Below, piece by piece: positions 33,750 through 43,760 of a stretch of 64,000 nt of DNA. Origin of the DNA: Oscillospiraceae bacterium (GTDB lineage Bacteria; Bacillota; Clostridia; Oscillospirales; Oscillospiraceae). Location of the stretch: assembly GCA_015068035.1 (NCBI GenBank), contig SVLI01000006.1:1-64000 (forward strand), written 5' to 3'. The notes beneath the pieces are model-generated. The model saw only the letters and a list, made by a program, of their open reading frames with translations, had not been told where the DNA came from and made no database searches. Position 1 is the first letter of the stretch. Each line of letters begins with the position of its first letter. A program made the translations under genes and the position numbers.

Positions 33750-35465
33750 TTATCCTTGCGGGGGCTTAATAGGTATGCCAAGTCGAAAGTAAACCCCCAT
33801 GCGGCGGCCTTCGGACATCTGCCCGTAGACAGTTTCACCGTCCATCTCCCTGTAGAAATGTCCCGTCTCGGCGTTGATGCCGTAGGTCACCTCTCCAGCC
33901 GTGAACAGAACGTCATAGTCGATGCTCTCGTCCTCGGCGATTTCCGCCAATGCAAGCGAGTTATCCAGATCCCCTCTCGCCTCGCCGGTAGCAATCTTGG
34001 TCAAAACTTGCGTGTTGCCTGAACCCTCAATTTCGACGCGGCCGCAATGAAGCGGATCCTCATTATTCATACTTATCTGCGTATACAATTCTTCCAGTGC
34101 ATTATAGTCAAATCCATCTGCCGGGCCTGCTTTGATATTCTCCGTAACAAAGTGAAACATATCCACCGAGCCTATTTTGACCTTCTCCTGCGCTGCGCCT
34201 GAGATTTTAAGATATTGGACGTTCTCCGTACGATTCATAAGGATCCTCACCTCTACGGTTTCGTCGGCGGTATGGAGCAGATACGATAAGACCTGACCCG
34301 TGGCTATTTGTTCCTCCGGATCCTCGAAAGTTTTGAAGCGACTGAGATCGGCTGCGTACAAAAGGTCAAGAAAGGCCTCTTTTTCAAGCTCGTTTGTCCC
34401 CATGTAAAACAACGAAGACATACCGCAAATAACATCAACGGCCAGCACATCCTCCCGCGCGGGAAGCGTCAGGTTTGGATTCCACTCCTTCGGCTCCGTG
34501 AGGATATGTTCATTCGGCACCGGCGTTGCCGTGACCTCGTTGTTCACCGGCGGCGGCGGTACTGTGCCGTCCGTCACAACAGAAATGGCTTTGATGCTTG
34601 ACGAGATGGGCAGATCATCCGCGTCCACGCGAATCAGCGCGTCGGTTACAACCAGCGCGGCACTCTCCATGAACGCGGCAGCCTCGTCCTCGCTGTCGAT
34701 GGGTAAGGCGAAGGTATATTCGCCATAATCGAAGTCGCTGGTGTCGGTTTTGAAATTATTCACGGAAGAGAGATTGGCGTATTCGCTCTCTCCGTTGACG
34801 ATCTTCAGGTAGCGGGGCACATCCCCGGACAGCGCGTTGATGACGACCGTCGCCGCGCCGGATTCTCCGATGTCAACGGATTCCACGGTGAACCAGTCTT
34901 TGCCCGCGATTTTGGCGTCCGGATCGTCGTCGCTGAATTTCGCAACCTTGCCCTCGGTAAGCGGCACGGAAACCGGCGTGATCTCCGTCGGCACGTAAAC
35001 AATCGGCGGGATGACATACAGGGTTTTGACGTCGTCCAGGCCTTTCGCGTCGTATTCATAGACATAGATTCCGTCTGCGGGTTTGCAGCCTGTCATCTGC
35101 AAAACGTTGGTGAAATCGCGGTCCGTTGCAACGATGATGTGCCGGCCGACCTCAAAGTACTCCCCGGCGGTGGTTTTGAATTCCACGGTGATTTCCAGCG
35201 TGTCCCCGCTCAGCTCCGCGTTTGGATAGGACACATCAATGTCATGCCCGCTGCGGGACAGGCGGATGGCCGGAATGATAAGAAATGCCGAAAGCGCCAG
35301 CAGAAGAATCAGGACGGCAGCAAGTAGCATCCATTTCTTCGGCCTTGCCACTCTCCGCCTGGGCGCGCCTGTGCCGGGCTGCGCCTTGTTCATTGCCATG
35401 CCGGCGTCGACGACTTTCTGCTCATCCGCTTCACCAATAAGCTGGAAAAGTTCTTCTTTTTTCAC
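33750..35465 (-). CDS. ECF-linked membrane protein, fused two-domain form (probable anti-sigma factor)
   Basis: A 571-residue protein. A short cytosolic N-terminus (KKEELFQLIGEADEQKVVDAG) precedes one membrane helix at about 45-65 (MLLAAVLILLLALSAFLIIP). Extracytoplasmic domain A (about 70-320) is homologous to the protein at 37148-38005, and domain B (about 340-571, with LPAREDVLAV, EDPLHCGRVE, GINAETGHFYREMDGE) is homologous to the lipoprotein at 36206-37039. The GTG start overlaps the stop of the sigma gene (GTGA), a sign of coupled synthesis and the usual place for an anti-sigma factor. The cytosolic part is short for a ZAS domain and lacks an obvious zinc motif, so the role is inferred. 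Confidence 0.85.
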   Translation of the reverse strand: MKKEELFQLIGEADEQKVVDAGMAMNKAQPGTGAPRRRVARPKKWMLLAAVLILLLALSAFLIIPAIRLSRSGHDIDVSYPNAELSGDTLEITVEFKTTAGEYFEVGRHIIVATDRDFTNVLQMTGCKPADGIYVYEYDAKGLDDVKTLYVIPPIVYVPTEITPVSVPLTEGKVAKFSDDDPDAKIAGKDWFTVESVDIGESGAATVVINALSGDVPRYLKIVNGESEYANLSSVNNFKTDTSDFDYGEYTFALPIDSEDEAAAFMESAALVVTDALIRVDADDLPISSSIKAISVVTDGTVPPPPVNNEVTATPVPNEHILTEPKEWNPNLTLPAREDVLAVDVICGMSSLFYMGTNELEKEAFLDLLYAADLSRFKTFEDPEEQIATGQVLSYLLHTADETVEVRILMNRTENVQYLKISGAAQEKVKIGSVDMFHFVTENIKAGPADGFDYNALEELYTQISMNNEDPLHCGRVEIEGSGNTQVLTKIATGEARGDLDNSLALAEIAEDESIDYDVLFTAGEVTYGINAETGHFYREMDGETVYGQMSEGRRMGVYFRLGIPIKPPQG

Positions 35466-36022
35466 AGGTCATACCCCCTTGCTGTCAGATAATCCTTCAT
35501 TTTGTTCCGAATGCGGTGGAGTGTGACAGAGACGTGACTCTCCGTCATGTCAAATTGTTTGGCGATTTTTGCAAGCGGGAAAGCGTACCAATAACGGCAC
35601 AGGAAAAGGTGGCATTTCTCCTTCGGGAGCGTATCCAGAAAACGGTTGATTTCCCGAATCAGCTCTTTCTTCTCAACTTCCTGCACTGTGCTGTCCGCGC
35701 CGGATACGCACTCGCCCAGTTCGTCAAGGACGAGTTCGATTTCTCCGCTGCCGCGCTTTTGGGCGTGCTTGTGTCGAAATCTGTCAAAGGATAGATTCCG
35801 CGTGATCTTCCCCAAAAAGGCAGACAGAATGTCAGGGCGGCGGGGCGGGATGGCGTTCCATGTCTTTAAGTAGGTGTCATTCACGCATTCTTCCGCGTCC
35901 TCGTGGTTGTCCAAAATGTTCTGTGCGATCGACTTGCAGAAATTGCCGTATTTGGAGGCAGTCTCCGCGATTGCATTGGAGTCTCTCTGCCAGTACAGAT
36001 TTACAATTTCTCTATCATCCAT
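35462..36022 (-). CDS. ECF-type RNA polymerase sigma factor
   Basis: A 186-residue sigma-70 family ECF factor: region 2 at about 20-85 (NHEDAEECVNDTYLKTWNAI, FLGKITRNLSFDRFR) and region 4 at about 130-180 (LPKEKCHLFLCRYWYAFPLAKIA, DMTESHVSVTLHRIRNKMKDYL). The ATG at 36022 has AAGGAGG. Its promoter at 36040-36085 is almost identical to one at 38058-38103, which suggests autoregulation and a second target operon. It is translationally coupled to the membrane protein downstream, the likely anti-sigma factor. Confidence 0.94.
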   Translation of the reverse strand: MDDREIVNLYWQRDSNAIAETASKYGNFCKSIAQNILDNHEDAEECVNDTYLKTWNAIPPRRPDILSAFLGKITRNLSFDRFRHKHAQKRGSGEIELVLDELGECVSGADSTVQEVEKKELIREINRFLDTLPKEKCHLFLCRYWYAFPLAKIAKQFDMTESHVSVTLHRIRNKMKDYLTARGYDL

Positions 36023-36039
36023 GAAATTGACCTCCTTCA

Positions 36040-36085
36040 CTTATACACACGGAAACCGCTGGGAAATCTTACAGGTTTTCAGACA
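36040..36085 (-). promoter_or_regulatory. ECF-type promoter of the sigma operon
   Basis: Minus strand: TGTAAG, 16 nt, CGT within a 46-bp element that matches 42 of 46 bases of the element at 38058-38103. Confidence 0.72.
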
Positions 36086-36205: not shown

Positions 36206-37039
36206 TTATTTTTGCAGAGGTATGTTAAGGTTCACCATAGCCTGCTTGAGTGGGTATTCTTCAAGCTGCGCATAGGCTTTTTCGCCGTCCATCTGCCTGT
36301 AGAAATGTCCCGTCTCGGTGTTGAGTCCGTAGGTCAATTCGCCAACCGTGAACAGAACGTCATAGCTGATGCTCTCGTCCGCAGCGATTTCCGCTTTCGC
36401 AAGCACGCTGTCCAGTTGCCCTCTCGAGTTAGCGGTCTGCGCCTTGTTCAATTTTTGCGTGTCGCCCGAATCCACAAATTCAACGCATCCGCAATGAAGC
36501 GGATCTTCCGTGTTTATTCTGATCTGCGTATTCAATTCATCCAGCGCTTTAGGATCAAACACATCCTCCGGGCCTTTCATGACATTTTTCTGCCCCGCGC
36601 TTGAGATTAAAAGCCATTGGACATCAATATCCGTGCGGATCTCTACCTCTATGGTTTCGTCGGCGGTCTGGAGCAGATACGATGAGGCCAGGCCCCCGGC
36701 CCCGGTCAACTCTTCTGGGACCTCAAAGCTGCTGAGATCGGCTTTGTACAAAAGGTCAAGAACGGCCTCTTTTTCAGATTCGTTTGTACCCATGTAATTA
36801 TAGCTGACAGTACCCAAACCCGCGACACCAACGCCAACAGCCAGCACATCCTCCCGCGCGGGAAGAAGCGCGATCTCTCCGTCTGTGTTCGGCTCGGGCG
36901 TTTCCGTGACCTCGTCTGTGTTCGGTTCTGCCGTTTCTGCGCTTTCATTGACATCCGTGCTCGGCGGCGTTTCTGCGCCGCAGGCGCTCAGCACAAAGCA
37001 CAGGATCACGCATAAAAGAATAAGCCATTTGTTTCGCAT
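36206..37039 (-). CDS. lipoprotein homologous to domain B of the ECF-linked membrane protein
   Basis: A 277-residue lipoprotein with lipobox VLSAC (about residues 14-18), an acidic Thr/Glu/Pro linker and a domain sharing LPAREDVLAV, YMGTNExEKEAxLDLLY, EDPLHCGxVE, YDVLFTxGExTYGxNxETGHFYR with the C-terminal half of the 571-residue protein. AAAAGGAG precedes the ATG at 37039. It is the second gene of the operon from the ECF-type promoter at 38058-38103. Complete domain and own signal peptide show it is not a pseudogene fragment. Confidence 0.87.
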   Translation of the reverse strand: MRNKWLILLCVILCFVLSACGAETPPSTDVNESAETAEPNTDEVTETPEPNTDGEIALLPAREDVLAVGVGVAGLGTVSYNYMGTNESEKEAVLDLLYKADLSSFEVPEELTGAGGLASSYLLQTADETIEVEIRTDIDVQWLLISSAGQKNVMKGPEDVFDPKALDELNTQIRINTEDPLHCGCVEFVDSGDTQKLNKAQTANSRGQLDSVLAKAEIAADESISYDVLFTVGELTYGLNTETGHFYRQMDGEKAYAQLEEYPLKQAMVNLNIPLQK

Positions 37040-37147
37040 AGGGTTTTCACTCCTTTTCAAAAATGGTCTGACATCCGAGTTGATCCCCGGCGTTATTCCC
37101 CCTGCTTATGCCGGTTTGCAAATCACAAAGGACAGCTTGCGGGTGCG

Positions 37148-38005
37148 TCACTCCTTCACAACGGAAAGAGATTTGACGCTTGACGTGACGGCTATATCCT
37201 GTGCGCGCATCTGAACCAGCGCGCCGGAAATATTCAGACTGGACTCCGCCACCAGCGCGGCGGCCGCGTCCGCGTCGTCAGCGGGCACACTAAAGGATAT
37301 TTCAACGGAATCCAAATTATCATCCCCGTCGAAATGCGGCACCGTGCTGCCGCTGTACGTCGTTTCTCCGCTGACAAGCTTCGGCGCGCGGGGCAGAATA
37401 GATTTCGAATATGGATTCATGGCAAGCGTGGTCTTCACCGTGTAGGTGCCGGGCTCAGCCTCTGTGATGTCAATGGATTCCACGGTGAACCAGTCTCCGT
37501 TGGATGAGGAACTCCGTTCTTTGATGTGGTATCTCGCGGACGCACCCACGACGGCCGGCACGGAAACCGACGTGCTCTCCGATTCCGCGAAAAGGATTGG
37601 CGGTTTGACATACAGCTTCTGCCCATCGGGCAGGTCTTTCGCATCGAATTTATACAGAGCGTTTCCCGCGAGTGTGTCTTTGCGGTCTATCATTGGCAAA
37701 ACCTCGGTGAAATCGGGGTCCGTTGCAATGAGAATGTCCCGGCCGATCTCATAGTAATTCGCGGGGGTGCTTTTGTATTCAGCGGAGAGCGTCAGGGTGC
37801 CCCAGCTGATCGTCATATCTGTGCAGACCATCTTGAAGTCCTTTGCGCTGCGCTCAAAGGCCAGACTCAGAAAAAACGTAAGAACCACCGCAAGGACAAT
37901 TATGAGCGCAACAAGTCTCGTCCACTTCTTCTTCGGCGGCTTTTCGCCGCTGCCGCCTGTTGCGTAAAGCAGAAAAGCCGGCATGAAATTTGAAAAGGGA
38001 TGCAT
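37148..38005 (-). CDS. membrane protein homologous to domain A of the ECF-linked protein
   Basis: A ~285-residue protein with a short cytosolic N-terminus, one membrane helix (LVALIIVLAVVLTFFLSLAF, about 32-52) and an extracytoplasmic domain. That domain shares YYEIGRDILIATDPDFTEVL, LYVxPPI and GDWFTVESxDI with domain A of the 571-residue protein. AAGGAGG lies 8 nt before the ATG at 38005; the frame also opens 18 nt earlier, but that codon overlaps the ribosome site. It lies under an ECF-type promoter and an upstream attenuator-like leader. It probably acts with the downstream lipoprotein. Confidence 0.85.
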   Translation of the reverse strand: MHPFSNFMPAFLLYATGGSGEKPPKKKWTRLVALIIVLAVVLTFFLSLAFERSAKDFKMVCTDMTISWGTLTLSAEYKSTPANYYEIGRDILIATDPDFTEVLPMIDRKDTLAGNALYKFDAKDLPDGQKLYVKPPILFAESESTSVSVPAVVGASARYHIKERSSSSNGDWFTVESIDITEAEPGTYTVKTTLAMNPYSKSILPRAPKLVSGETTYSGSTVPHFDGDDNLDSVEISFSVPADDADAAAALVAESSLNISGALVQMRAQDIAVTSSVKSLSVVKE

Positions 38006-38057
38006 AGAATGAACCTCCTTCAAAGGCTTCGGTTTCTTTTGGCCGACGGTCTCTCCA

Positions 38058-38103
38058 CTTATATAAACGGAAACCGCCCGGAAATCTTACAGGTTTTCAG
38101 ACA
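38058..38103 (-). promoter_or_regulatory. ECF-type promoter of the split-protein operon
   Basis: Same 46-bp element as 36040-36085 (42/46 identical): TGTAAG-N16-CGT on the minus strand, about 52 nt before the ATG at 38005. Confidence 0.72.
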
Positions 38104-38119: not shown

Positions 38120-38305
38120 AAAAAACGCATGAACACCCTTCTGAAAGCGGATGTTCATGCGCCCACACTTGTTGTTTTGCTTCGTCCTCTCCAAATATGG
38201 AGGGATAAACACCGTTGGCTTATGCTGTGGCGCATGAACAGTTTGCTGTGCATATCAAGTTCCTCCATTTCCTGAAGTTTGGCGGGGCAAATGGTACAAT
38301 TACCC
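38120..38305 (-). ncRNA. attenuator-like leader RNA with competing hairpins
   Basis: Minus-strand order: segment A TGTTCATGCGCC (38229-38240), segment B GGCGCATGAACA (38152-38163), segment C TGTTCATGCG (38126-38135), then T6 (38120-38125). B pairs perfectly with A over 12 bp or with C over 10 bp. B-C plus the T run is a terminator, and A-B is its alternative. A lies inside a possible 32-codon reading frame. The transcript would run from the promoter at 38312-38341. Confidence 0.6.
38155..38253 (-). CDS. possible 32-residue leader peptide
   Basis: ATG at 38253 with GGAGG 8 nt upstream; the frame reads MHSKLFMRHSISQRCLSLHI... and ends TSVGA at a TGA inside segment B of the leader RNA. It is cationic with no family. 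Translation through segment A would free B to form the terminator, which is the logic of leader-peptide attenuation. Coding status rests on the promoter, ribosome site and structure only. Confidence 0.4.
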   Translation of the reverse strand: MHSKLFMRHSISQRCLSLHIWRGRSKTTSVGA

Positions 38306-38311
38306 CATCAC

Positions 38312-38341
38312 ACTATATCATGGATAGCCCGGCTCTGTCAA
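38312..38341 (-). promoter_or_regulatory. sigma-A promoter of the leader RNA
   Basis: On the minus strand TTGACA (38336-38341), 18 nt, TATAGT (38312-38317). Confidence 0.68.
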
Positions 38342-38559: not shown

Positions 38560-40245
38560 TTACTTGGCGGGCTGGATCGGATACTTCTCGATCGGCACAT
38601 CCTCGGTGGACATGGTCATCTGGCCGTCCTCGTTCTTGATGACGATCCACTTGAGCCAATTCTCGTTGTCCATCTCCGGATAGTCCTCACGCAGGAACCA
38701 ACCACGGGACTCCTTGCGCTCCTTGGAGGCAAAGTAGTGCATCTCGGCGGAGAGAACCATGTTCTCGGCCTCGTGGCAGCACAGCACGCCGTGCATATCC
38801 TTGGCCTTCAGCTTCGGCAGCAGGGCCTTGGCTTCCTCGACGAGGGCAACGGCTTCCTTCATGCGGCCTTCCTCCATGTACACGGAGTAGTCGGACGGAG
38901 CCATGGCCTTCTGGATGAGGTAGATGACGTCCTTCTCGGAAACGCCCTCTTCGCGGTACAGCGGGGCATAGATGGTCTCGAAGCACTTGTCGAGCTGGCA
39001 GGGGCAGATCGCGGGCACGTCTTCCAGAGTGCGCTCAGCGATATCGTCCGCGCCGAGGATACCGGCGAACACGGCGTTGAGGATGCCGCTGCCGCGGTTT
39101 CTGGCCGGAGGCGCAGGAACAGCGCCGCAGACGCCGGAGCCGCAGTAGCTCGCGTCACCGATCGCGTACAGACCCTCGATGGTGGTCTGCATGCCGTGGT
39201 CGACCTTGATGCAGGACTGCTCACCGATCAGCATCGGGCAAACTTCCATATCGACGTCGATCTCGCCGTCCTTGTTGTTGAGCTCACGGAACTTGTCGCC
39301 GTAGCGCGGGGGCATCGGGGGACGGCCCTCGCCGGGCTTGCCGCCGCCCATGGGATGGCCCATCTGGCCGTAATCCAGGTGGATCGGGCCGGTGCCGTTG
39401 AGCATGTTGAGGTACCACTCGCGGACAGCCTTGCTGGGGATGTCGGTCTCACGCTTGTCGGTGAAGTTCTTGGTGACGTACTCGTTGTTGGCGTTGTACA
39501 TGAAGTTCTCGCCGAAAACGACCTCGTGGAAGCTCTTCACGCGCACGAGCTGGAAGAAGTTGCCGAACTCGGCATTGCGCATCTCAGCGCCGGCACGGTA
39601 GGCAGCGCCGATACCGTCGCCGCGGCCGCTGCTCCACATGGAGCCGAAGCGGTAGTTCTGGCTGCCGGTGGCGAGAACGACCTTCTTGGCGGAGATGCTG
39701 TAGAAGGTGCCGTCATCCAGGATGCTGTAAGCAGCAGCGCCGATGACCTTGCCGTTATCGGTGAACAGCTCGGCAACAGCGGTCTTGTCCATGATGCGAA
39801 CGCCCAGCTTCTCAGCCGTTCTGCGCATGCGCAGGCACAGGTCGAGCTCGCAGGAGATCATCGCGGTGAAGGGGCCGGTGGGCATAACAGCGTAGCTGCC
39901 GTCCGGCTTCTTGGGGATCTTGATGCCCCACTCGGTCATCTTGTCGAGCATGCCGTGGTTCATCTCGACATACTTGATCATCAGATCCTGGTCGCCCAGA
40001 TAGCAACCGATCTCATTGACGTGGAACTGCAGGAAGTCCATGGGCGTGATCTTGTCAAGCTGGAAGTACTGCAGAACGCCGCCGCCCTTGTTGGCCTTGC
40101 CGCCAAAGCCGGTGACCTGCTTCTCAACGATGAGAACGTCCAGGTCGGGACGCTTTTCTTTCAGTTCAACGGCGCAAACCAGGCCGCCGATACCGCCGCC
40201 TGCGATCAGAACGTCGCAGCTGAGTTCTTTACGGGTAATTTCCAT
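38560..40245 (-). CDS. FAD-dependent oxidoreductase, AprA/fumarate-reductase-like (copy 1)
   Basis: A 561-residue cytosolic flavoprotein of the fumarate reductase/AprA superfamily with no signal peptide. The FAD loop VLIAGGGIGGLVCAVEL is at residues ~12-28, GFGGKANKGGG near 45-56, and GLYAIGDASYCGSGVCGAVP near 345-365 forms the second FAD contact. C-terminal helical domain ends PIQPAK. AGGAGG precedes the ATG at 40245. A dicluster ferredoxin gene lies 16 nt upstream, so electrons probably flow between FAD and the ferredoxin as in AprAB. No adenylylsulfate pathway genes are present, so sulfate reduction is unlikely; reduction or oxidation of an organic substrate is inferred. Confidence 0.9.
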   Translation of the reverse strand: MEITRKELSCDVLIAGGGIGGLVCAVELKEKRPDLDVLIVEKQVTGFGGKANKGGGVLQYFQLDKITPMDFLQFHVNEIGCYLGDQDLMIKYVEMNHGMLDKMTEWGIKIPKKPDGSYAVMPTGPFTAMISCELDLCLRMRRTAEKLGVRIMDKTAVAELFTDNGKVIGAAAYSILDDGTFYSISAKKVVLATGSQNYRFGSMWSSGRGDGIGAAYRAGAEMRNAEFGNFFQLVRVKSFHEVVFGENFMYNANNEYVTKNFTDKRETDIPSKAVREWYLNMLNGTGPIHLDYGQMGHPMGGGKPGEGRPPMPPRYGDKFRELNNKDGEIDVDMEVCPMLIGEQSCIKVDHGMQTTIEGLYAIGDASYCGSGVCGAVPAPPARNRGSGILNAVFAGILGADDIAERTLEDVPAICPCQLDKCFETIYAPLYREEGVSEKDVIYLIQKAMAPSDYSVYMEEGRMKEAVALVEEAKALLPKLKAKDMHGVLCCHEAENMVLSAEMHYFASKERKESRGWFLREDYPEMDNENWLKWIVIKNEDGQMTMSTEDVPIEKYPIQPAK

Positions 40246-40261
40246 GTCTTTCATCCTCCTG

Positions 40262-40507
40262 TTACGCGTAGCGCTCAAAGTGCTGCAGCAGGTGCTCGCT
40301 GGAATGATCCGGGATGACCTTGATCGCTTCCTTGGCACAGACGCTCTGGCAGTAGAAGCAGTGCTCGCAGTCCTCAACATACTTGAAGACCGGCTTCTTC
40401 GCCTCGGCATCCCAGCGGATGACGTCTACGAAGCAAGCCTTGTAGCACAGCTGGCAACCGACGCACTTCTCGGGATCGAACTCGATTTTGTGATTAGTGA
40501 AAATCAT
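40262..40507 (-). CDS. dicluster [4Fe-4S] ferredoxin subunit (copy 1)
   Basis: An 81-residue ferredoxin with two cluster motifs, Cys15-x2-Cys-x2-Cys-x3-Cys25 and Cys47-x2-Cys-x2-Cys-x3-Cys57. It is the electron-transfer partner of the flavoprotein directly downstream. It differs from copy 2 (42410-42655) by a single residue (Lys7/Arg7), so the pair was duplicated recently or is kept identical by conversion. It is the first gene of an operon with a LysR-type box at fixed distance. Confidence 0.93.
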   Translation of the reverse strand: MIFTNHKIEFDPEKCVGCQLCYKACFVDVIRWDAEAKKPVFKYVEDCEHCFYCQSVCAKEAIKVIPDHSSEHLLQHFERYA

Positions 40508-40539
40508 ATATAATCACACCTCCATATAAATCTTTCGCA

Positions 40540-40597
40540 ATTTTATCATATTCGACGTGAATTAGCTAATATACTTATGGTAAAAATAATATAACCC
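40540..40597 (-). promoter_or_regulatory. promoter and LysR-type box of flavoprotein operon 1
   Basis: -10 TAAAAT at 40540-40545 on the minus strand; box beginning ACTTATGGTAAA (plus-strand reading) at 40573, 27 nt away. The same box and spacing occur at 42692-42749. Confidence 0.7.
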
Positions 40598-40625
40598 GAC
40601 GGTTAAGAAAACGACACAAAAGGCG

Positions 40626-40668
40626 GAAAAATGCAAGCGCAGACGGGTTTAACCGCCTGCGCTTTTGT
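40626..40668 (-). terminator. terminator of flavoprotein operon 2
   Basis: AAGCGCAGACGGG pairs with CCGCCTGCGCTT (small mismatch), T-rich on the minus strand. Confidence 0.78.
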
Positions 40669-40710
40669 TCATTTTGTGCCAAAAAGCCGAACGGCAATGG
40701 AATGCGTTCC

Positions 40711-42390
40711 TTACTTCGCGGGCTGGAAGGGCCACTTCTCGATCGGCACATCCTCGGTGGAGAGGGTCATCTTGCCGTCCTCTTCTTTGAGGATGATCCA
40801 TTTGAGCCAGTTTTCGTTGTCCATCTCCGGATAGTCCTCGCGCAGGAACCAACCGCGGGATTCCTTACGCTCCTGAGACGCGCAGTAATGCATCTCGGCG
40901 GAGAGCACCATGTACTCGGCCTCGCGGCAGCACAGCACGCCGTGCATGTCAACGGCCTTCATCTTCGGCACCAGAGCTCTGGCCTCCTCGACGAGGGCAA
41001 CGGCCTCCTTCATGCGGCCGGCTTCCATGTAAACAGAGTAGTCGGACGGCGCCATGGCCTTCTGGACGAGGTAGATGACGTCTTTCTCGGAAACGCCCTC
41101 TTCGCGGAAGAGGGGAGCATAGAGCGCCTCGAAGCACTTGTCAAGCTCACAGGGGCAGATCGCGGGCACGTCTTCAACCGTGCGCTCGGCGATGTCGTCC
41201 GCGCCGAGGATGCCGGCAAACACGGCGTTGAGGATGCCGCTGCCGCGGTTTCTGGCCGGAGGCGCGGGCACGGCGCCGCAGACGCCGGAGCCGCAGTAAC
41301 TGGTGTCGCCGATGGCGTACAGGCCCTCAACCGTGGTCTGCATGCCGTGGTCGACTTTGACGCAGGACTGCTCACCGATGAGCATCGGGACAACCTCGAT
41401 GTCGGTATCGATCAGGCCGTCGATGTCGTTGAGCTCGCGGAACTTGTCGGCATAGCGCGGGGGCGCCGGAGGACGCTTGCCGCCGAGCAGGATCTTGCCG
41501 CGCGGATCGTCGCCGTATTCCAGATGGATCGGGCCGGTGCCGTTTTTCATGTTGAGATACCACTCGCGGATGGCCTTGCTGGAGATATCGGTCTCGCGCT
41601 TGTTGGTGAAGTTTTTGGTGACGTGCTCGTTCAGAGCGTTATACATGTTGTTCTCGCCGTAAACGACCTCGTGATGGCTTCTGATGCGCACGAGCTGGGA
41701 GAAGTTGCCGAACTCGGCGTTGCGCATCTCCGCGCCGACATGGTAAGCTGCGGCAATACCGTCGCCGCGGCCGCTGCTCCACATGGGGCCAACGCGGTAG
41801 TTCTGGCCGCCGGTGGCGAGCACGACCTTCTTGGCGGAAATGCTGTAGAAGGTGCCGTCGTCCAGAATGCTGAAGGCCGCAGCGCCAATGATCTTGCCGT
41901 CCTTGGCAAAGAGCTCTGCCAAAGCGGTCTTGTCCATGATGCGCACGCCCAGCTTCTCAGCCGTTCTGCGCATGCGCAGACACAGGTCGAGCTCGCAGGA
42001 GATCATCGCGGTGAAGGGACCGGTGGGACGCACGGCATAAGTTCCGTCGGCCTGCTTGGGAATTTTCACGCCCCAGGCGGAGAGACGGTCGAGCATCTCG
42101 TGGTTCATCTCGACATACTTGAGCATCAGATCCTGATCACCCAGATAGCCGCCGATCTCGTTGACGTGGAACTCCAAAAATTCCATGGGTGTGATCTTGT
42201 CAAACTGGAAGTACTGCAGAACGCCGCCGCCCTTGTTGGCCTTGCCGCCGTAGCCGGTGACCTGCTTTTCAATGAGCAGAATGTCCAGGTCGGGGCGCTT
42301 TTCCTTCAGCTCAACGGCGCAAACCAGGCCGCCGATGCTGCCGCCTGCGATCAGAACGTCGCACTTGAGTTCTTTGCGGGTGATTTCCAT
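40711..42390 (-). CDS. FAD-dependent oxidoreductase, AprA/fumarate-reductase-like (copy 2)
   Basis: A 559-residue paralogue of the flavoprotein at 38560-40245, similar along its whole length. The FAD loop reads VLIAGGSIGGLVCAVEL: the middle Gly of the G-x-G-x-x-G motif is Ser here. The region near residue 290 differs most (EYGDDPRGKILLGGKRPPAP against a Gly/Met-rich stretch in copy 1), and this part probably lines the substrate side. Start ATG 42390 has AGGAGG. The ferredoxin gene lies 19 nt upstream. The two flavoproteins may handle related substrates or serve as redundant copies. Confidence 0.9.
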   Translation of the reverse strand: MEITRKELKCDVLIAGGSIGGLVCAVELKEKRPDLDILLIEKQVTGYGGKANKGGGVLQYFQFDKITPMEFLEFHVNEIGGYLGDQDLMLKYVEMNHEMLDRLSAWGVKIPKQADGTYAVRPTGPFTAMISCELDLCLRMRRTAEKLGVRIMDKTALAELFAKDGKIIGAAAFSILDDGTFYSISAKKVVLATGGQNYRVGPMWSSGRGDGIAAAYHVGAEMRNAEFGNFSQLVRIRSHHEVVYGENNMYNALNEHVTKNFTNKRETDISSKAIREWYLNMKNGTGPIHLEYGDDPRGKILLGGKRPPAPPRYADKFRELNDIDGLIDTDIEVVPMLIGEQSCVKVDHGMQTTVEGLYAIGDTSYCGSGVCGAVPAPPARNRGSGILNAVFAGILGADDIAERTVEDVPAICPCELDKCFEALYAPLFREEGVSEKDVIYLVQKAMAPSDYSVYMEAGRMKEAVALVEEARALVPKMKAVDMHGVLCCREAEYMVLSAEMHYCASQERKESRGWFLREDYPEMDNENWLKWIILKEEDGKMTLSTEDVPIEKWPFQPAK

Positions 42391-42409
42391 ATCTCGTCCT
42401 CCTGTTCTG

Positions 42410-42655
42410 TTACGCGTAACGCTCGAAGTGCTGCAGCAGATGCTCGCTGGAATGATCCGGGATGACCTTGATCGCTTCCTTGGCGCAGACGCTCTGGCAG
42501 TAGAAGCAGTGCTCGCAGTCCTCAACATACTTGAAGACGGGCTTCTTCGCCTCGGCGTCCCAGCGGATGACGTCTACGAAGCAGGCCTTGTAGCACAGCT
42601 GGCAGCCGACACACTTCTCGGGATCGAATTCGATTCTGTGATTCGTGAAAATCAT
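42410..42655 (-). CDS. dicluster [4Fe-4S] ferredoxin subunit (copy 2)
   Basis: An 81-residue ferredoxin identical to copy 1 except Arg7. Two [4Fe-4S] motifs (Cys15-25 and Cys47-57). First gene of flavoprotein operon 2; the operon start lies ~230 nt from the divergent lysR gene. Confidence 0.93.
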   Translation of the reverse strand: MIFTNHRIEFDPEKCVGCQLCYKACFVDVIRWDAEAKKPVFKYVEDCEHCFYCQSVCAKEAIKVIPDHSSEHLLQHFERYA

Positions 42656-42691
42656 ATAAAGTCCAATACCTCCATCCTGAAATATATTTAC

Positions 42692-42749
42692 ATTTTAACA
42701 TATAGGGCTTGAAATATCTAATTCACTTATGGTAAATTTGTTATAACCA
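42692..42749 (-). promoter_or_regulatory. promoter and LysR-type box of flavoprotein operon 2
   Basis: -10 TAAAAT at 42692-42697 on the minus strand; box starting ACTTATGGTAAA at 42725, again 27 nt apart. Confidence 0.7.
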
Positions 42750-42860
42750 TTTCAGCGCACATATGGTGGAAACATTATAACCATTCCAGCGCACGTATGG
42801 CGGAGGGATTATAACCATTCCAGAACACGCATGGCAAAACTATTATAACGATTTTGTATA
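42725..42860. repeat. four 34-bp iterons, probable LysR-type regulator sites
   Basis: Four imperfect tandem units start at 42725, 42759, 42793 and 42827, each with ATGG, 8 nt, TTATAACSATT. The core ATGGT-N12-ACCAT is an imperfect palindrome. Unit 1 is the box of flavoprotein operon 2; units 2-4 extend to the lysR promoter. Confidence 0.8.
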
Positions 42861-42884
42861 TTACTGAGAAAGTAGGAATGACAA

Positions 42885-43760
42885 ATGACACAGTCTCAGA
42901 TCAATTATTTTCTGGCCGTGGCCGGGGACGGGAGCATCACGCGCGCGGCAAGCCGCCTGTTTGTCTCGCAGCCGGCGATCAGCAAAAGCATCTCAGCAAT
43001 GGAGAAAGAGCTGGGCTTCGCGCTGTTTTCCAGATGGGAAAAGAGCATCACGCTGACCTATGCGGGCAAGCTGCTGTATGAATTTTTCTCCCGCTCGAAG
43101 GATGAGTATCGGCATCTGCTCAAGGAGATCGACCAGTACAGGGACCGCACGTCGCGGCATATTCGCATCGGCTGCCCCTCCACCTGGAATCCGGAGGCTT
43201 TTTGTCCGGCGATCATGGATCACTTCCGCGCCACGCAGCCGGATCTGACCATCGGCATCGAGTGCTTCCCTCTGCCGGAGATGCTCAATATGCTCAAAAA
43301 CCGGGAGCTGGACATGATTCTCTCGCTTGACCTGCGGGAGACGTTTTTGATGGGGATGTGCACGAAGCACGTCGCCACGACGGGCTGCGGCGTGCTGTAT
43401 TCCAAAAAGTGCTTTCCGGACGTCAAGAGCATCGGCGACCTGCGGTATACACAGTTCCTCGGCTGGGACACAAGCGCGAAGGATCAGTTTGAGGCGCTGG
43501 CCAGCAGGATCTGCGGGGACGAGTTCACGCCGGCGTTCAAAAACTGCGCCAACTACCATACGGCGGTTTTCGAGCTCACGCGTGGCAACGGCGTGATGAT
43601 CTTTGCGGATTGGGACAGCGCCGTGCATTCGGAGCTGTTCGAGTATCTTCCGCTGGACACGAATGTGTATATCAACGCAGTCTTTTCCGTGGAGAATCAG
43701 GCCGCGGCGGCCTTTGCCGATGAACTTGCGCAGATCTTTGGCTGCGATGGCCAAAAATAA
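42885..43760 (+). CDS. LysR-family transcriptional regulator
   Basis: A 291-residue LysR-type regulator. The winged helix is at residues 1-60 (QINYFLAVAGDGSITRAASRLFVSQPAISKSISAMEKELG); the periplasmic-binding-protein-like effector domain covers 90-291. It is divergent from flavoprotein operon 2 and sits behind the 34-bp iterons, the classical arrangement for a LysR protein controlling the neighbouring operon and itself. The effector is unknown; the regulated genes suggest an aromatic or carboxylate compound. The PucR-type gene follows by 36 nt. Confidence 0.93.
   Translation: MTQSQINYFLAVAGDGSITRAASRLFVSQPAISKSISAMEKELGFALFSRWEKSITLTYAGKLLYEFFSRSKDEYRHLLKEIDQYRDRTSRHIRIGCPSTWNPEAFCPAIMDHFRATQPDLTIGIECFPLPEMLNMLKNRELDMILSLDLRETFLMGMCTKHVATTGCGVLYSKKCFPDVKSIGDLRYTQFLGWDTSAKDQFEALASRICGDEFTPAFKNCANYHTAVFELTRGNGVMIFADWDSAVHSELFEYLPLDTNVYINAVFSVENQAAAAFADELAQIFGCDGQK

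What the first reader, a model, noticed from the sequence alone, without database searches (positions are those of the whole stretch)
38120..38341. Attenuator-like leader with a 32-codon frame upstream of an ECF-driven operon
Within 222 nt there are a TTGACA-N18-TATAGT promoter, a GGAGG-preceded small frame, and three segments A, B, C where B pairs perfectly with A (12 bp) or with C (10 bp plus T6). A is inside the small frame, so its translation would favour termination. A second hairpin (CTCCATATTTGGAG) lies between A and B. It could instead be a small RNA or a small protein gene. No known riboswitch recognised.
Basis: partly seen in the sequence, partly recalled or inferred. Interest (0 to 1): 0.72.

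Follow-up and report, generated by a model that had tools for sequence, protein, structure and literature searches.

The report
Leader-peptide switch before exported-protein genes
A short conserved peptide is encoded just before a built-in "stop transcribing" hairpin upstream of genes for exported proteins in a few gut bacteria, in an arrangement suggesting that a ribosome pausing at the peptide's stop codon switches the next gene on; it appears to be a new, unnamed member of the leader-peptide (attenuator) class of genetic switches.

Summary
On the minus strand lie a sigma-70-type promoter, a GGAGG-preceded 32-codon frame, and segments A, B and C, where B pairs with A or with C plus T6. Relatives in three families of one clostridial order carry the same leader, intact or decayed. 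In the intact ones the peptide is conserved at its C-terminal end (WRGR-x-K, Trp 11 residues before the last residue) through synonymous change. The stop codon lies inside the 5' arm of the terminator (B). B:C shows compensatory changes at 6 of 12 pairs; A:B is clear in only some lineages. In six relatives the next gene, always with an N-terminal signal or membrane segment, starts 39-57 nt after the terminator, leaving little room for another promoter. Best explanation: a ribosome-mediated transcription attenuator, in which a ribosome held at the leader stop codon masks B, blocks the terminator and lets transcription through. Arrest and its signal are inferred, not shown. In the window a repeated ECF-type promoter sits between terminator and operon, so that operon is probably under dual control. 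No Rfam, Pfam, NCBIfam or literature match was found. New variant of a known kind.

The parts
38312..38341 (-). sigma-70-type promoter, TTGACA-N18-TATAGT with extended -10 (TG)
   Evidence: a promoter of this type is found 38-60 nt before the leader start in all 13 loci examined, 12 of them with TG before the -10
38262..38266 (-). Shine-Dalgarno GGAGG, 8 nt before the leader ATG
   Evidence: sequence; similar purine-rich site in most relatives
38155..38253 (-). leader frame, 32 codons: MHSKLFMRHSISQRCLSLHIWRGRSKTTSVGA, stop TGA at 38157-38155
38229..38240 (-). segment A (TGTTCATGCGCC), pairs with B; clear only in some lineages
38189..38202 (-). small hairpin CTCCATATTTGGAG over the Trp-Arg codons; weak or absent in relatives
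38182..38193 (-). codons for the conserved W-R-G-R motif; Trp is 11 residues before the last residue in every full-length intact relative
38152..38163 (-). segment B, 5' arm of the terminator; contains the leader stop codon
38120..38135 (-). segment C (TGTTCATGCG) and the T6 tract, 3' arm of the intrinsic terminator
38056..38092 (-). ECF-type promoter TGTAAG-N16-CGTTTATA between leader terminator and gene 1
   Evidence: near-identical 37-bp copy before the ECF gene; also in same-genus G001; similar sites before two paralogous ECF genes, read by eye from the printed sequence
37148..38005 (-). first gene of the operon, 285 aa, N-terminal membrane anchor and predicted beta-rich exported domain
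36206..37060 (-). second gene, lipoprotein-like N-terminus; not seen at this place in same-genus G001
36038..36074 (-). second copy of the ECF-type promoter, before the ECF sigma gene
35462..36040 (-). ECF sigma factor (likely start at the ATG at 36022)
33750..35465 (-). 571-aa membrane-anchored protein; its N-terminal half is homologous to gene 1 and its C-terminal half resembles gene 2

Best explanation
It is a ribosome-mediated transcription attenuator. RNA polymerase starts at the sigma-70-type promoter and transcribes a short leader frame that is translated (translation inferred from selection on the peptide). If the ribosome finishes and leaves, B pairs with C and transcription ends at the T tract. 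If the ribosome stays on the last codons, with the stop codon at or near its A site, it covers B; the terminator cannot form and the exported-protein genes are transcribed. The conserved C-terminal motif (W-R-G-R-x-K, Trp at a fixed distance from the stop) is most simply read as a nascent-peptide arrest signal acting inside the ribosome tunnel at the stop codon. Shown by computation: the parts, their co-occurrence, purifying selection on the motif, B:C covariation, and the geometry. Inferred: arrest, its trigger and the direction of control. In the window lineage A can hold B until C is made, a possible second antiterminator when the leader is not translated, and an ECF-type promoter downstream gives the operon a second, leader-independent start.
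For: Relatives with peptide and terminator in three families of the order. Motif under purifying selection: for the 9 codons WRGRIKIVS mean pS 0.56 against pN 0.13 (0.10 without the window); the N-terminal part is far less constrained. Trp-to-last-residue distance is 11 in all nine full-length intact leaders compared; the stop codon falls inside B in all of these. B:C: 96% of cells paired, 6 pairs changed on both sides, 0 of 500 shuffles as high. Ribosome-mask folding: terminator probability falls to 0-0.16 with the A site within 3 codons of the stop, and is 0.8-1.0 without a ribosome, in nine leaders. Terminator end to next start codon is 39-57 nt in six relatives, little room for another promoter. 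Every downstream gene family has an N-terminal signal or membrane segment.
Against: No transcript, toeprint or expression data. Only about a dozen loci, some closely related. The window's own peptide has lost I28, I30 and V31 of the motif (S, T, T). G010 keeps A, B and C but has ATC in place of the start codon and no WRGR; L101 keeps the peptide but lacks C; L103 is decayed. The conserved Gly-Ala-stop may reflect B's pairing rather than the peptide. In the window an ECF-type promoter downstream of the terminator could drive the genes without any read-through.
Confidence: 0.6

Rival explanations
1. One reading: A:B is the antiterminator and B:C the terminator; the leader only measures whether it is translated, and a ribosome on A favours termination.
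For: A:B is strong in window/G001, G010, L062 and L031; two pairs change on both sides; L088 changes A, B and C together although the residues FMRH become IMCY; in a transcript ending after B, B pairs upstream with probability 0.54-0.98 in nine leaders.
Against: A:B is not significant in L104, L101 and L071 and marginal in L089; the covariation of A:B is reached by 28 of 500 shuffles; it does not explain selection on WRGR or the fixed Trp-stop distance; at equilibrium B:C wins.
Confidence: 0.2
2. A free-standing small-protein gene with an ordinary terminator; the peptide acts after release and the terminator merely ends its transcript.
For: Purifying selection on the peptide; own promoter and terminator; the window operon has its own ECF-type promoter.
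Against: The stop codon is always within or at the edge of the terminator arm; in six relatives the next gene starts 39-57 nt after the terminator, so read-through appears needed; A mirrors C in several lineages.
Confidence: 0.12
3. A classical amino-acid attenuator in which lack of Trp- or Arg-tRNA stalls the ribosome at the W/R codons.
For: Conserved W, R, R, K codons.
Against: A ribosome stalled at the Trp codon (12 codons before the stop) leaves B free and the terminator forms; downstream genes are exported proteins, not recognisable Trp or Arg enzymes; no run of control codons.
Confidence: 0.04
4. A non-coding small RNA; the frame is incidental.
For: Compact promoter-to-terminator unit; G010 has lost the start codon but kept A, B and C.
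Against: Synonymous pattern in the WRGRIKIVS block and a conserved frame and start context.
Confidence: 0.04

Closest known systems
MsrDL / msrD macrolide-inducible attenuator (PMC10314930)
   Same: Leader peptide before an intrinsic terminator; there, the stalled ribosome cannot form peptide bonds or accommodate release factors and obstructs the Rho-independent terminator.
   Different: Different peptide; downstream genes here are exported proteins, not an ABC-F resistance factor; inducer unknown; here the stop codon lies inside the terminator arm and stays there through compensatory changes.
TnaC / tnaCAB (PMC8429421)
   Same: Short leader with an essential Trp 12 residues before the last residue (here 11); [quoted passage not shown] outcome is continued transcription.
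   Different: TnaC blocks Rho access, here an intrinsic terminator; no Asp or terminal Pro at the TnaC positions; no tryptophanase or Trp transport genes downstream.
Sec/YidC monitoring arrest peptides: SecM, MifM, CliM, RAPP types (PMC10987492, PMC13183943)
   Same: Conserved C-terminal motif, some stall at the stop codon, patchy distribution, link to exported proteins.
   Different: No N-terminal signal or membrane segment in the leader; no RAPP motif; downstream genes are not secA, secDF or yidC; the target is a terminator rather than a masked ribosome-binding site.
trp-type attenuators (general knowledge)
   Same: Alternative pairing A:B or B:C within a translated leader.
   Different: Three segments, no control-codon run, stop codon inside the terminator arm.

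Membership tests
Ribosome-mediated transcription attenuators (general class) | Translated leader frame before an intrinsic terminator and a downstream gene | tested here: met
   translation inferred from selection only
Ribosome-mediated transcription attenuators (general class) | Ribosome position changes termination | not testable with these tools
   geometry agrees; no experiment
TnaC | Trp, Asp and terminal Pro at set positions; tnaA/tnaB downstream | tested here: not met
   Trp spacing similar (11 against 12), no Asp or terminal Pro, other genes
Drug-inducible resistance leaders (MsrDL, Erm type) | Resistance gene downstream | tested here: not met
Sec/YidC monitors | N-terminal signal/TM segment in the leader and a sec or yidC gene downstream | tested here: not met
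   peptides are short and basic; other genes downstream
Rfam RNA families (4227) | Match above the gathering score | tested here: not met
Pfam Leader_CPA1 (fungal arginine attenuator peptide) | Match above the curated cut-off | tested here: not met
   E 0.22, 11.4 bits against 18.5; probably chance

The most novel reading that the evidence does not exclude
A new class of ribosome-arrest leader peptide (W-R-G-R-x-K, 11 residues from Trp to the end) that senses an unknown signal in the exit tunnel and, by holding the ribosome on the terminator arm, controls several unrelated operons of exported proteins in gut bacteria of one clostridial order, carried between them as a regulatory module.
Probability: 0.4. 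Interest if true: 0.75.

Novelty: new variant of a known kind. Interest (0 to 1): 0.6.

Why it matters
Known arrest peptides are few, and several have exposed a signal read inside the ribosome. This one has a motif not found in the libraries searched, a strict geometry that makes direct predictions (pause at the stop codon, loss on changing Trp or Arg), and it sits before uncharacterised exported proteins, including a papain-like protease, of gut bacteria whose control is little known.

Tried and rejected
Known RNA family: none. Phage or plasmid origin: no match by DNA or peptide nor in viral contigs. Exact-word search with TTCATGCGYCAYAGC gave mainly chance coding hits. The B/C pattern in 84,980 genomes gave 55 stretches; most proteobacterial ones look like one protein-coding gene (reading RIRMN..VFMRSMATR), others look like unrelated terminators or chance. 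Weak peptide hits L091-L097 (E 2e-4 or weaker) look like coding sequence or chance; L091-L093 were inspected, the rest set aside on score. The small middle hairpin as a required part: not conserved. Fold of gene 1: model pLDDT 74, no PDB match at E <= 0.001. Literature: no paper found with this motif. In one search the background fraction (0.36) rests mostly on 45 window frames, because alignment rows of the same name overwrote two loci in the script; its p-value of about 1e-4 is only a guide.

Full report
Observation. The leader lies on the minus strand of the window. Promoter, GGAGG, 32-codon frame, segments A, B and C and the T tract are all present at the stated place. The word TGTTCATGCG occurs three times in 64 kb, all three here. 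A:B and B:C pair more strongly than shuffled sequence: A:B 0.2% of dinucleotide shuffles and 3% of synonymous recodings, B:C 0 of 500. The small hairpin in between is real but not a shared feature. The flavoprotein gene upstream has its own terminator-like site (38484-38467), so the leader looks like a separate transcription unit.

Relatives. The own genome holds one copy. The other genome of the genus, G001, matches at 92% over the leader, with a changed terminator loop and promoter spacer. The stretch between terminator and gene 1 is about as well kept there, so identity in that pair alone says little about the leader. A pattern scan of 84,980 species and peptide-profile searches of the order, three families and the class added Intestinimonas butyriciproducens (L062/L085), Pseudobutyricicoccus lothianensis (L031/L086), L027, L071, L088, L089, L090, L101, L103 and L104; G010 had come from the first DNA search. 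Those with genome handles all lie in the same order, in families f1, f13 and f26; a sample of 391 genomes of the class gave only G000 and G085, both of this order. Frequency is about 1-3% of the genomes searched. Phage, plasmid and viral collections gave nothing.

What is conserved. (1) A sigma-70-type promoter 38-60 nt before the leader start in all 13 loci, with TG before the -10 in 12. [quoted passage not shown] In the nine codons WRGRIKIVS the mean proportion of synonymous differences is 0.56 and of non-synonymous ones 0.13; the N-terminal part is much looser. Trp is 11 residues before the last residue in all nine full-length leaders compared and 8 in the shortened L071. (3) The stop codon sits inside the 5' arm of the terminator (GC-GCA-TGA, GC-ACA-TGA or GC-GCA-TAA), in L071 at its edge. 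(4) The terminator covaries: 6 of 12 pairs change on both sides, including one inside the stop codon (TGA/TCA against TAA/TTA), and no shuffle or slid register comes near. (5) The downstream gene has an N-terminal signal or membrane segment in every family seen: the window membrane protein, a C70/C39-like cysteine protease, a protein with a serine-protease-like GAGSSGGP segment (my reading; no family match), and unknown proteins. The background rate is roughly a third (a rough figure).

What is not conserved. Segment A. A:B is strong in window/G001, G010, L062 and L031, fair in L027, L088 and L090, marginal in L089 and not detectable in L104, L101 and L071. In L088 A, B and C have changed together (CGC to TGC in A, matching changes in B and C) while the amino acids changed, which favours a role for the pairing there; over six sequences the covariation of A:B is only suggestive (28 of 500 shuffles).

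Mechanism. Folding with a ribosome footprint (14 nt behind and 16 nt ahead of the P site, an assumption) shows that only a ribosome close to the stop codon prevents B:C: the terminator probability is 0-0.16 from three codons before the stop onwards, intermediate at four and five, and 0.85-1.0 for earlier positions, as it is without a ribosome. This, with selection on the peptide end and the fixed Trp-stop distance, makes nascent-peptide arrest at the stop codon the simplest account, with read-through as the result, as shown experimentally for MsrDL (PMC10314930) and, with Rho in place of an intrinsic terminator, for TnaC (PMC8429421). C. [quoted passage not shown] Arrest and its trigger are inferred here, not shown. 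In six relatives the downstream start codon is 39-57 nt after the terminator, so those genes most likely depend on read-through.

The window operon. It differs in having 119 nt after the terminator, holding TGTAAG-N16-CGTTTATATAAGTG at 38091-38056. A 37-bp copy stands before the ECF sigma gene (36074-36038); chance expectation of such a pair is 0.00. G001 has both copies. Similar sequence is visible before two paralogous ECF genes (L076, L078, read by eye; my regular expression was not built for this spacing). The operon is therefore probably ECF-driven from inside, with leader read-through as a second input. Gene 1 and gene 2 resemble the two halves of the 571-aa protein at the operon end (the gene 2 part is by eye).

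Exceptions. G010 has ATC for the leader start and no WRGR, but keeps A, B and C and a homologous downstream gene. L101 keeps the peptide and lacks C. L103 has in-frame stops and a damaged terminator. These look like decaying copies and suggest the leader is dispensable in some lineages.

Limits. About a dozen loci and no expression data. Some homologs (L026, L027, L031, L035, L062, L071) were found through the B/C sequence itself, which biases those rows towards the window's B and C. L088, L089, L090, L101, L103 and L104 were found by peptide alone, and L088, L089, L090 and L104 carry most of the B:C changes.

Noticed in passing
window 38056-38092 and 36038-36074: Near-identical 37-bp ECF-type promoter before gene 1 and before the ECF sigma gene; suggests autoregulation and gives a readable target motif for this ECF group.
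   Followed up: partly
window 33750-35465, 36206-37060, 37148-38005: The 571-aa protein looks like a fusion of a gene 1-like and a gene 2-like domain; gene 2 is not seen at the same place in same-genus G001.
   Followed up: partly
L079 and L081 (G001 C26, G000 C2): An ECF sigma homologue with one in-frame TGA in both species of the genus.
   Followed up: no
L004/L026 (G010): Leader with ATC in place of the ATG start that still keeps A, B and C; a short remnant-like frame lies between terminator and gene.
   Followed up: partly
L101 1173-1433 and L031 5671-5949: Similar small membrane proteins in the operons of two leader loci; L101 seems to have lost the terminator and the first genes.
   Followed up: no
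L021-L024, L029, L030 and other proteobacterial loci: CGCATGAACA...TGTTCATGCG arises in one conserved protein-coding gene (RIRMN..VFMRSMATR, MeaB-like by memory), a chance palindrome.
   Followed up: no
window 38560-43760: Two consecutive FAD/fumarate-reductase-type flavoprotein genes upstream of the leader, with a divergent LysR-type regulator beyond them.
   Followed up: no
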